Of a stretch of 64,000 nt of DNA, positions 48,673-52,085 are shown one piece after another. The notes beneath the pieces were generated by a model that ran no database searches, was not told the DNA's origin, and saw nothing but the letters and a program-made list of their open reading frames with translations. Each line of letters begins with the position of its first letter. Positions within the stretch are counted from its first letter, which is position 1. Position numbers and translations under genes: made by a program. This stretch comes from Catenulispora acidiphila DSM 44928. Its GTDB lineage: Bacteria; Actinomycetota; Actinomycetes; Streptomycetales; Catenulisporaceae. The stretch spans positions 7,688,001-7,752,000 of the forward strand of contig NC_013131.1 of assembly GCF_000024025.1 (NCBI RefSeq), in the 5' to 3' direction.

Positions 48673-49998
48673 ATGCTCCGCATGCACGACGCCGCCAAAC
48701 CCCTGGCGTCGATACCCCCGCTCGTCCTCGATATCGCCCTCGCGGCAGCCGTCACCTGGCTAGCCGTCGCCGCCTCGGTCCGTCCCCACGCATTACACGG
48801 CAGCAGGCACATAGACGGCATCGCCATCACTCTGGTCATCGCGATGGGCGCCGCCCTGATCCTCCGCCGCAGGTTTCCCTTAGCGGTGCTGGGAGTCTGC
48901 GCCGCACTAGTGGCGGGCTACGAGGCGCACGGCTACCGCATGGGACTGGCACAGATCGGACTGCTGCTGGCGATGTTCACGGTCGGAGCACTGCGCGCGC
49001 GTCCCTGGGCGGCACTGGCAGCGGGCATCACCTACGCAGAGCTCTTGTACGACCACTCCCACACCTGGTCCGGCTCGCACGTCTGGTTCTACCTGGGGAC
49101 CGCACTGTGGGTAGCGGCGGTGGCGATCATCGCCGACGGCGCGCGGCGACTGACCGAAAGCCGCGAACTGCTGGCGGCATATAAGGAGCAGGTGCAGCGC
49201 AAGCACCGCGACCGCGAGCAGCGTGCGGTCCTGCTGGAGCGCATCCGCATCGCCCGCGAACTGCACGACGTGACGGCGCACCACCTGTCGGTCATCGCGG
49301 TGCAGGCCGGAGTCGCGCGCTTCGTCATCGACAAGGAACCGGAAACCGCCGACCAGGCACTCCGCGCCATCTCGGAGGTCGGCAGCGAAGGCCTGGCCGA
49401 ACTGCGCCGCCTGATCAGCCTCCTGCGCCCCGAGGACGACGAAGGCGCCCGCGCGCACACCTCCGACCCGCCGGCACCAGGCGTGGCGCAACTCCCGGTG
49501 CTTATAGAGCGCGTCGGCCTGTCCGGCACCCCCTCCCGCTACACGGTCGCCGGCCACAAGCGCACCCTCCCAGCGGGCATCGAGCTCTGCGTCTACCGCG
49601 TGGTCCAGGAATCCCTGACCAACGTCCTGAAGCACGCCCCCGGCAGCTCCGTCGAAGTCCGCCTCGAATACGAACCCGAAACCATCCGCGTCACCATCAC
49701 CGACACCGGCACCCACCCCGTCCCACCCCGCAAATCAGGCATCCCCGCCGCCGCCATCACCCAAGCCACCCGCCACAGCGGCAGCGGCGTAGGCCTCACC
49801 GGCATGCGCGAAAGAGCAGCCCTCTACGGCGGCGAACTCTCCGCCGGCCGCACCACCAACGGCGGCTTCGAGGTGGCGCTGGCACTCCCGGTAGTGGCGG
49901 AGCCCGCGGAGGCGGAGGAGGCCGAAACCGAGAGCGAGGGCGGGGACGGGAAGATCGCGGCGCCTGCGGAGGCGGCGAAGGTTGGGGTCGGGGCTTGA
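48673..49998 (+). CDS. NarL-type (HisKA_3) sensor histidine kinase
   Basis: A 441-residue membrane kinase. About five hydrophobic segments fill the first 160 residues. The dimerisation/phospho-acceptor region reads RIARELHDVTAHHLSVIAVQ (His198), which is the HisKA_3 pattern. The ATP-binding domain has RVVQESLTNVLKHAPGS (N-box), ITDTGTHPVP (G1) and SGVGLTGMRERAALYGGE (G2). An acidic Ala-rich tail follows. It should phosphorylate a NarL-family regulator; the nearest candidate is the orphan response regulator at 40563-41339. It is divergent from the FHA-FtsK ATPase. The second ATG at 48682 is possible. Confidence 0.87.
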   Translation: MLRMHDAAKPLASIPPLVLDIALAAAVTWLAVAASVRPHALHGSRHIDGIAITLVIAMGAALILRRRFPLAVLGVCAALVAGYEAHGYRMGLAQIGLLLAMFTVGALRARPWAALAAGITYAELLYDHSHTWSGSHVWFYLGTALWVAAVAIIADGARRLTESRELLAAYKEQVQRKHRDREQRAVLLERIRIARELHDVTAHHLSVIAVQAGVARFVIDKEPETADQALRAISEVGSEGLAELRRLISLLRPEDDEGARAHTSDPPAPGVAQLPVLIERVGLSGTPSRYTVAGHKRTLPAGIELCVYRVVQESLTNVLKHAPGSSVEVRLEYEPETIRVTITDTGTHPVPPRKSGIPAAAITQATRHSGSGVGLTGMRERAALYGGELSAGRTTNGGFEVALALPVVAEPAEAEEAETESEGGDGKIAAPAEAAKVGVGA

Positions 49999-50618
49999 GG
50001 TAGGCATTCTTTATGCGCGGCGGCGGCGCTGCTGGCTGCGCGGGGCTGGAGGCGGAGCGGCGGTTTGTGTGCGGCGGCGCTGCTGACTGTGCGGGGCTTA
50101 AGGCGGGGCGGTGCTTTCGTGTGCGGCGACGCTACTGGCTGCGCGGGGCTCGAAATGGGGCGACGGTTTCGTGTGCGGCGACGCTGCTGGCGGTGCGGGC
50201 TTGAGGTGAGGCGGCGGTTTTGTGCGCGGCTGCGCTGCTGGCTGCGCGGGGCTGGAAGCGAGGCGGCGGTTTCGTGCGCGGCGACGCTGCTGGCGACGCG
50301 GAGCTCGAGGCGAGGCGGCGGTTTCGTGTGCGGCTGCGCTGCTGGCTGCGCGGGGCTGGAAGCGGAGCGGCGGTTTCGTGCGCGGCTGCGCTGCTGGCTA
50401 CGCGGAGCTCGAGGCGAGGCGGCGGTTTTGTGTTCCGTGGTGTGTGCGCGGCGGCGCTGCTGGCTGCGCGGGTGAGTTTGTGGGTGTGCGTGGTTGCTAC
50501 ATGGCGGCTGGCGGTGGTGGTTGTTCACGACCGCCGGCCGCCAGCGCCACCCGGATACGCTCCACCGAACTGCGTTCCCTGCGAGGCCATCAAACCGTGC
50601 GCGAAGCCGTAAAAGCTG
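49999..50618. other. 620-bp intergenic region, dominated by a minisatellite
   Basis: No gene is supported. Bases about 50019-50475 are the 52-bp tandem repeat listed separately. The rest (50476-50618) contains short GC-rich and AAAA-containing bases near the rhaB stop, without a clear hairpin. Confidence 0.7.
50019..50475. repeat. Nine-copy ~52-bp tandem minisatellite
   Basis: Units begin near the CTGCTGG element at 50029, 50080, 50132, 50184, 50235, 50287, 50339, 50391 and 50457, so the period is 51-52 bp except the last full unit (66 bp, with an insertion). A typical unit reads CTGCTGGCTGCGCGGGGCTG then GAAGCGGAGCGGCGGTTTCG then TGCGCGGCTGCG. Units alternate between two versions (GCGGGGCTGGA and GCGGAGCTCGA). 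The length is not a multiple of 3, so the repeat is unlikely to be coding. Confidence 0.9.
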
Positions 50619-52085
50619 TTAAAACCCACCACTCAACCGCGCCGCCGCCTCATCCCAAGCAGCGCGATCCCCGCCGGGCACATACCGCGTGAGCGACTGC
50701 GTGCGGGCTACCAGTGCGCGCATCTCGGTGCGGTCGCCGAGTAGGCCGAGGGCTCGCGCTTGGACCAGGACGTTGCCGAGGGCTGCTGCTTCGGTGGGAC
50801 CGGCGACCACCGGTAGGCCGCATGCGTCGGCGGTCAGTTGGCACAGGAGTGTGTTGCGTACGGCGCCGCCGACCATGTGGACCACGTCTATGGGCTGATC
50901 GGCGAGGCGTTGGGCGTCCTCGATCGCGCGGCGGTGTGCCAGGGCGAGTGAGTCGAGGATGCAGCGGGTGATTTCCGGTGGTGTGTTGGGGACCGGTTGC
51001 CCTGTGGCGCGGCATGCTTCGCGGATGCGGTCGGGCATGTGGTCCGGTGCGAGGAAGGTGGCGTCCGCGGCGTCGATCACCGAGCGCAGTCCTGGCACCT
51101 TACGGGCAGCAGCGAGTAGTGCGGGAAGCTCGACCCGCCACTCGCGCACGCACTCCTGCAGCAGCCACAGACCCATGATGTTGCGCAGGTAGCGGATCGT
51201 GCCGTCGATCCCGGCCTCGTTCGTGAAGTTCGCGGCCCGGCTCGCCTCGGACAGCACTGGATGCTCGAGCTCGAGTCCGGCCAGTGACCATGTTCCGGTG
51301 CTGATATACGCGAAGCGCTCCCCCGCTGCGGCCGGTACGGCGACCACCGCCGACGCCGTGTCATGCGAAGCCACCGCCGTCACCGGAACCGGACCGCGCA
51401 ACCCGGCGGCCTCCAGCACGGCAGGCAGCAGGTCCCCGATCCGCGCTCCCGGTTGCCGCAGCGGCGGGAACAGCCCGACGTCCACCCCGAGCCGACCGGC
51501 CAGATCCGCAGACCATGTTCGGCTGGAGGCATCGAGCAGCTGTGTGGTGGAAGCGTTGGTGACCTCAGTGCCGGCGATCCCGGTCAGCCAATAGGCCATC
51601 AAATCCGGAATCAGCAGTGCCTGGCGAGCAGCAGCCAACGCACCAGTCCCCCGCGCCGCAATGAGCTGATACAGCGTGTTGAATGGCGCGTGCTGAATGC
51701 CGGTGACCGCATACAGTGCCTCGGCAGGCACCGTTTTCCATGCGCGCTCGGCAACACCCTCTGTCCGCGCGTCGCGATAGTGCACCGGATTGCCGACCAA
51801 GGCACCGTCAGCGTCGAGCAAGCCGTAGTCCACGGCCCAACTGTCGATTCCGATCGATGCGACCTGACCACCGGCGCGCAGCCCATCCACAATGCCCTGA
51901 TACAGCGCGAGCGCATCCCAATACAACGTCCCGCCGACGCGCACCGGACGGTTCTCGAACCGATGCGCCTCACGCATCTTCAAGCAGTCTGTACCGACCC
52001 GCGCGACCATCACCCGTCCGCTGGACGCGCCCAGATCAACCGCCGCGACGGTCCCGGTGGTCCCGGTCTCGGTCCCGCCGCTCAT
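50619..52085 (-). CDS. rhaB: L-rhamnulokinase
   Basis: A 488-residue FGGY kinase that phosphorylates L-rhamnulose. The rhamnulokinase-specific start reads AAVDLGASSGRVMVARVG, with HRFENRPVRVGGTLYWDALA, IGIDSWAVDYGLLDADG and NPVHYRDARTEG. The C-terminal ATP half has THE AYISTGTWSLAGLELEHP strand and MVGGAVRNTLLCQLTADACG. The ATG overlaps the aldolase stop by 4 bp. Last gene of the rhaI-rhaD-rhaB operon. The long non-coding repeat region follows it downstream. Confidence 0.93.
   Translation of the reverse strand: MSGGTETGTTGTVAAVDLGASSGRVMVARVGTDCLKMREAHRFENRPVRVGGTLYWDALALYQGIVDGLRAGGQVASIGIDSWAVDYGLLDADGALVGNPVHYRDARTEGVAERAWKTVPAEALYAVTGIQHAPFNTLYQLIAARGTGALAAARQALLIPDLMAYWLTGIAGTEVTNASTTQLLDASSRTWSADLAGRLGVDVGLFPPLRQPGARIGDLLPAVLEAAGLRGPVPVTAVASHDTASAVVAVPAAAGERFAYISTGTWSLAGLELEHPVLSEASRAANFTNEAGIDGTIRYLRNIMGLWLLQECVREWRVELPALLAAARKVPGLRSVIDAADATFLAPDHMPDRIREACRATGQPVPNTPPEITRCILDSLALAHRRAIEDAQRLADQPIDVVHMVGGAVRNTLLCQLTADACGLPVVAGPTEAAALGNVLVQARALGLLGDRTEMRALVARTQSLTRYVPGGDRAAWDEAAARLSGGF

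What the first reader, a model, noticed from the sequence alone, without database searches (positions are those of the whole stretch)
50019..50475. Nine-copy 52-bp minisatellite with two alternating unit types
A long array of about 52 bp units with GCGGGGCTGGA and GCGGAGCTCGA versions lies between the histidine kinase stop and rhaB stop. No frame stays open through the non-triplet period. Possible structural RNA, recombination hot spot, variable-number locus, or transcription/topology control.
Basis: seen in the sequence. Interest (0 to 1): 0.5.

Follow-up and report, generated by a model that had tools for sequence, protein, structure and literature searches.

The report
Minisatellite between two facing genes
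A real but ordinary-looking tandem DNA repeat sits between the ends of two genes that face each other; no product or function was found for it, and its main interest is that in the sampled part of this genome such non-coding repeats lie mostly between facing genes.

Summary
The array is real: eight full units of 51-52 bp and a partial ninth, window 50020-50475, between the stops of a histidine kinase gene (+, 49998) and an FGGY sugar-kinase gene (-, 50619), far above shuffles. Strict alternation holds only for the last four units, a duplicated 104-bp dimer. The unit was found at no other place in the genome, folds no better than shuffles on either strand, and is not called as coding, although one minus-strand frame is stop-free. 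Two relatives with the same directly facing gene pair have 37-bp and 120-bp spacers without it. The kinase gene's last bases align in register as a possible founder unit. In 27% of the genome, arrays with a period not divisible by three occur in 17 of 158 convergent spacers against 5 of 956 others; 8 of 10 in a replication set were convergent. So the array belongs to a class tied to position, not sequence. Best reading: slippage or unequal recombination growing repeats at a gene end, tolerated and perhaps promoted where transcription converges. Copy-number variation and transcription could not be tested. The spacer also holds one arm of a dispersed inverted-repeat family, itself mostly in convergent spacers.

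The parts
50020..50433 (+). eight full 51-52 bp tandem units (minisatellite)
   Evidence: null
50226..50433 (+). two copies of a 104-bp dimer (u5u6 / u7u8), the only strictly alternating part
   Evidence: 96% and 92% identity
50434..50447 (+). 14-bp insertion between unit 8 and the partial ninth unit
50448..50475 (+). partial ninth unit
49972..50019 (+). end of the kinase gene with its stop codon and the bases after it; aligns in register to unit 4, possible founder unit (inferred)
   Evidence: weaker unregistered test
48673..49998 (+). upstream gene: HisKA_3 / HATPase_c sensor histidine kinase
50503..50542 (+). GC-rich hairpin (13 + 4 pairs, 4-nt loop), no U-run; possible bidirectional terminator (inferred)
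   Evidence: z -4.89 for 50500-50565; one search finds no terminator with a T-run
50484..50642 (+). one arm of a dispersed inverted-repeat family; its outer end overlaps the last 24 bases of the facing gene

Best explanation
A non-coding, lineage-specific minisatellite in the spacer between two convergent genes. Shown: its anatomy, the duplicated dimer, its absence from two sister spacers, the lack of a coding or folding signal, and its membership of a class of arrays with unlike units concentrated between convergent genes. Inferred: it grew by replication slippage or unequal recombination, possibly starting from the kinase gene's end; it persists because little between two stop codons has to be kept in place; and the strong bias against other spacers suggests that convergence itself (meeting transcription, positive supercoiling, untranslated transcript ends) raises the birth or growth rate of repeats. 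No function of its own is proposed.
For: Array far above shuffles. Duplicated 104-bp dimer. Same facing gene pair with 37-bp (G011) and 120-bp (G012) spacers without array. Unit found nowhere else in the own genome above the control level, nor in plasmids or phages; no exact match of a unit pattern in genome contigs (the own or very near records may be left out there). Class: arrays with period >=20, score >=100 and period not divisible by 3 are convergent in 10 of 14 (discovery) and 8 of 10 (replication), against 12.9% and 11.6% of spacers >=100 bp; by distinct spacers 17 of 23 in all, 7 of 9 in the replication set. 17 of 158 convergent against 5 of 956 other spacers hold one, odds ratio 23, p 2.4e-11. 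Without the arrays these convergent spacers have ordinary length (median 197 against 190 bp). Convergent arrays tend to be G-rich on the sense strand of the nearer gene (29 arrays, rho -0.46, p 0.012, uncorrected).
Against: The bias is weaker in 80 loci of other bacteria: 4 of 12, p 0.057, so no general rule is shown. Counting also arrays with periods divisible by three, 29 of 64 are convergent. Arrays in tandem spacers show no sense-strand G bias: 19 of 40, and T skew does not follow position (rho 0.06). Three other arrays were sought in relatives by sequence only, not by locus. The gene calls are my own and incomplete (77-81% of bases). No transcription, supercoiling or copy-number data. Relaxed constraint alone may explain part of the bias.
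Confidence: 0.8

Rival explanations
1. The array is a functional 3'-end device: as part of the kinase transcript's 3' end it slows or ends transcription, or sets mRNA stability, and insulates the two facing genes.
For: It starts 22 bp after the kinase stop and lies before a strong hairpin; convergent placement of the class; G-rich on the kinase sense strand.
Against: Absent in two sister species that keep the gene pair; folds no better than shuffles; no G-quadruplex motif (0 found); arrays of the class have unlike units (listed), so no shared signal is seen.
Confidence: 0.12
2. A hypervariable VNTR locus whose copy number switches or tunes a neighbouring gene.
For: Dimer duplication; presence/absence between species.
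Against: 25 of 28 unit pairs differ by 12-23%, which should lower slippage; it lies downstream of both genes, not in a promoter or a called reading frame; no second strain available here.
Confidence: 0.1
3. A coding repeat: the stop-free minus-strand frame (234 aa) is a real repetitive protein.
For: ORF 49824-50528 is open through the array.
Against: 52-bp units put successive copies in different frames; no gene called there; no Pfam family; the sister spacers of 37 and 120 bp lack the array that makes up most of it. Plus-strand ORFs of 130-156 aa overlap the array as well, as expected in GC-rich DNA.
Confidence: 0.02
4. Origin: the array was seeded by tandem duplication of the kinase gene's end, stop codon included (compatible with the best explanation).
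For: Aligned in register, the 60 bases before unit 1 score 17 against unit 4; 15 of 19,997 random 60-mers and 12 of 3000 G-rich 60-mers score as high; blastn joins 49972-50019 to the array. The stop context is similar in G011, which has no array.
Against: Test set up after the blastn match was seen; without fixed register 53 of 4354 windows score as high; the kinase end is itself G-rich and repetitive.
Confidence: 0.35

Closest known systems
Bacterial minisatellites / VNTR loci used for strain typing (general class; passages of PMC2884548 seen)
   Same: Tandem units over 20 bp, non-coding, between genes, with a sign of later duplication.
   Different: 25 of 28 unit pairs are 77-88% identical, below the 90% setting of that paper; variation within the species not tested.
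MIRU-VNTR units of mycobacteria (size and a site beside a two-component kinase gene recalled; only the listing seen)
   Same: GC-rich actinobacterial tandem units of similar size near a histidine kinase gene.
   Different: MIRUs are dispersed to many loci (recalled); this unit was found at one locus. Sequences were not compared.
Intergenic stem-loops preferring gene 3' ends and convergent spacers (passages of PMC1590033 seen)
   Same: Same placement preference between convergent genes.
   Different: Those are stem-loops; no inverted repeat was found in the spacer by the seed-based search and the array has no stable fold. The neighbouring dispersed arm and hairpin fit this kind better.

Membership tests
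minisatellite (general sense) | several head-to-tail copies of a unit of tens of bp, beyond chance | tested here: met
   shuffles at most 95 against 520/572
minisatellite by the search setting of PMC2884548 | identity of at least 90% between repeats | tested here: not met
   3 of 28 unit pairs reach 90%
VNTR locus | copy number differs between strains of the species | not testable with these tools
   one genome per species held; two sister spacers lack the array
MIRU-type interspersed unit | related units at many loci of the genome (feature recalled) | tested here: not met
   7 of 8 pattern matches in the array, control 5; one further 49-bp 82% match, 40 of 257 candidates scored; none elsewhere in 2.864 Mb
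structured RNA | fold more stable than shuffles | tested here: not met
   Rfam
protein-coding repeat | coding statistics in a continuous frame | tested here: not met
   no gene called; 52-bp unit
CRISPR array | near-identical repeats separated by unlike spacers | tested here: not met
   the whole unit is repeated

The most novel reading that the evidence does not exclude
In this organism, converging transcription itself breeds minisatellites: spacers between facing genes are about twenty times more likely to hold a non-coding array than other spacers, with unlike units that tend to be G-rich on the sense strand of the nearer gene, so that repeat birth marks sites where polymerases or positive supercoils meet.
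Probability: 0.3. Interest if true: 0.6.

Novelty: new member of a known kind. Interest (0 to 1): 0.3.

Why it matters
The single array matters little. The class does more: a strong, replicated bias of non-coding tandem arrays towards convergent spacers in one bacterial genome gives a simple way to ask whether meeting transcription generates repeats, or whether only these spacers tolerate them. If the arrays vary between strains they could also serve as typing markers.

Tried and rejected
Structural RNA on either strand: rejected. Mobile or dispersed repeat unit: rejected for the array. Coding repeat: rejected. G-quadruplex: no motif, 0 against a shuffle mean of 0.25; a two-G pattern gives 9 against 6.5. 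Origin from the inverted-repeat arm: not supported, 16 arms with median score 18.5, 36% of 4000 random windows and 53% of shuffled arms as high. Arrays tied to the inverted-repeat family: of 158 convergent spacers 9 hold an arm, 17 an array and 2 both, little more than the one expected by chance. A common G+T strand bias of arrays: 26 arrays with period not divisible by three, rho 0.30, p 0.14, same sign in 12 of 26; over 78 non-coding arrays rho 0.41, but array-free convergent spacers show 0.36.

Rows dropped before the class counts: arrays with score under 100 or period under 20; arrays at stretch ends (2 with a period not divisible by three, both in the replication set); stretch L078 with a CRISPR-like array (3 rows); spacers under 100 bp. 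Arrays with periods divisible by three were counted apart (convergent 11, tandem 29, divergent 1), because 29 against 4 in tandem spacers points to coding genes that were missed; including them gives 29 of 64 convergent. The sampled stretches leave gaps, and the replication set holds nothing beyond 8.02 Mb.

Full report
What is there. The window is part of a single-contig genome of 10,467,782 bases. From memory this size is that of Catenulispora acidiphila; no call names the organism. The array occupies 50020-50475: eight units of 51 or 52 bp, a 14-bp insertion, and a partial ninth unit. Its score of 520 (572 at the three-unit period) stands against a maximum of 95 in 500 shuffles of the 620-bp spacer. 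The spacer runs from the stop of a sensor histidine kinase gene to the stop of a facing FGGY sugar-kinase gene.

What it is not. Neither strand of the array folds better than shuffles (plus z 0.66, minus z 1.69), nor do single units and dimers (z between -0.65 and 1.38). Rfam gives two microRNA-family matches with E 0.17 and 0.91, far below their gathering scores and lying at 50471-50565, mostly outside the array. A unit pattern with up to three mismatches has 8 matches in the own genome, 7 in the array; the reversed control has 5. A DNA search of the own genome gave one further match, 49 bp at 82%, inside a different 135-bp repeat, with 40 of 257 first candidates scored. Seven of 13 relatives have matches, of 28-146 bp and weak. 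Plasmid and phage collections have none at E 1e-5.

Age and origin. Ten of 13 relatives hold a kinase gene at 64% identity or more, two of them in part only. The sugar-kinase gene was found beside it in three, within short flanks; for G006 the contig ends just after the kinase match, so nothing can be said. The spacer is 37 bp in G011 and 120 bp in G012, without array; in G013 it is 491 bp with another open frame of 124 aa and a very weak match to the inverted-repeat arm (10.5 bits). The array is thus special to this lineage, or lost in the others. The bases before unit 1, which include the kinase stop codon, align in register to unit 4: 15 of 19,997 random and 12 of 3000 G-rich 60-mers score as high. 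The test was set up after a blastn match suggested it, and without fixed register the level is about 1% (53 of 4354). A founder unit at the kinase gene's end is therefore possible, not shown.

The class. I took 140 stretches of 20 kb and the window (2.864 Mb, 27% of the genome), called genes and listed arrays. Of the arrays inside called genes 57 of 57 had periods divisible by three, and 65 of 66 (15 of 17 in the other bacteria), which supports the calls; arrays with other periods outside genes are taken as non-coding. In the discovery set (80 stretches and the window) 10 of 14 such arrays lay between convergent genes, in the replication set (60 stretches) 8 of 10; by distinct spacers 17 of 23 in all. 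Convergent spacers are 12-13% of spacers of 100 bp or more. With the last caller 17 of 158 convergent, 4 of 609 tandem and 1 of 347 divergent spacers hold such an array (odds ratio 23, p 2.4e-11). Without the focal array it is 17 of 23 arrays. The bias remains within classes of spacer length less the arrays: 6 of 91 against 3 of 530 (100-250 bp), 5 of 32 against 1 of 252 (250-500), 2 of 21 against 0 of 147 (500-1500); 4 of the 17 and 1 of the 5 array spacers fall outside these classes. Tandem spacers also have a promoter-free half, so tolerance alone should give more arrays there than are seen; this is an argument, not a proof. In 80 loci of other bacteria (1.51 Mb; two are Chloroflexi by their titles, nearly all the rest are named as Actinobacteria), 4 of 12 such arrays were convergent, expected 12.8%, p 0.057.

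Strand bias. Arrays in convergent spacers are more G-rich on the plus strand near the plus-strand gene and more C-rich near the other (29 arrays, rho -0.46, p 0.012; 18 with periods not divisible by three, p 0.049; no correction for several tests). T skew shows no such trend (rho 0.06), and arrays in tandem spacers show no sense-strand bias, 19 of 40. The focal array fits the first trend: G skew +0.33, starting 22 bp after the kinase stop. Array-free convergent spacers show a weaker G bias of the same sense (+0.03 in the first and -0.06 in the last 60 bases, p 0.0014).

The neighbour. The spacer's right part, 50484-50642, is one arm of a dispersed family. A search with 50476-50618 gave 58 matches in this genome and 40, 41, 30 and 7 in G007, G013, G012 and G011; only 40 first candidates per genome were scored, so these are probably lower bounds. 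In the survey 17 arms were found in 11 spacers; 15 of the 16 arms that could be placed, and 9 of 10 spacers, are convergent; 5 of the 11 spacers hold an inverted pair, each arm next to a gene end. The hairpin at 50503-50542 lies at its inner end. Stem-loops preferring convergent spacers are known in general (PMC1590033, passages). By alignment the array did not arise from this arm.

Literature. Papers were seen as listings and passages (PMC2884548; PMC8360656; PMC1590033). PMC8360656 reports enrichment of a positive-supercoil sensor between convergent genes in E. coli and yeast. None of the listings showed a paper whose title or abstract start describes minisatellites concentrated in convergent spacers of a bacterium; subscription journals are mostly not held.

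Verdict. A confirmed, non-coding, lineage-specific minisatellite, ordinary as a single locus, belonging to a positionally biased class that deserves a full survey.

Noticed in passing
window 50484-50642; L051 15714-16272, L130 294-913, L085 1410-2702 and others: Dispersed inverted-repeat family with arms of about 170 bp: 58 matches in this genome and many in four sister species; 15 of 16 placed arms lie between convergent genes, 5 of 11 spacers hold inverted pairs. No Rfam match at gathering level in four stretches holding it, none in plasmids; no match in G005, G006, G008, G009.
   Followed up: partly
L078 12855-13802: Three tandem-repeat rows of 61-bp period with a GC-rich palindromic repeat, CRISPR-like (label recalled), in a stretch of the own genome.
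   Followed up: no
window 50619-50642: The outer end of the inverted-repeat arm overlaps the end of the sugar-kinase gene; an element may have shaped that gene's last codons. Inferred by eye from the sequences.
   Followed up: no
L088 11083-11723: Another convergent-spacer array with 88-bp unit; a second match of 83% overlaps it on the left, so it is longer than first listed.
   Followed up: partly
L002 1141-1588: A 135-bp repeat at 6.22 Mb of the own genome, where the only other short match to the array lies.
   Followed up: partly
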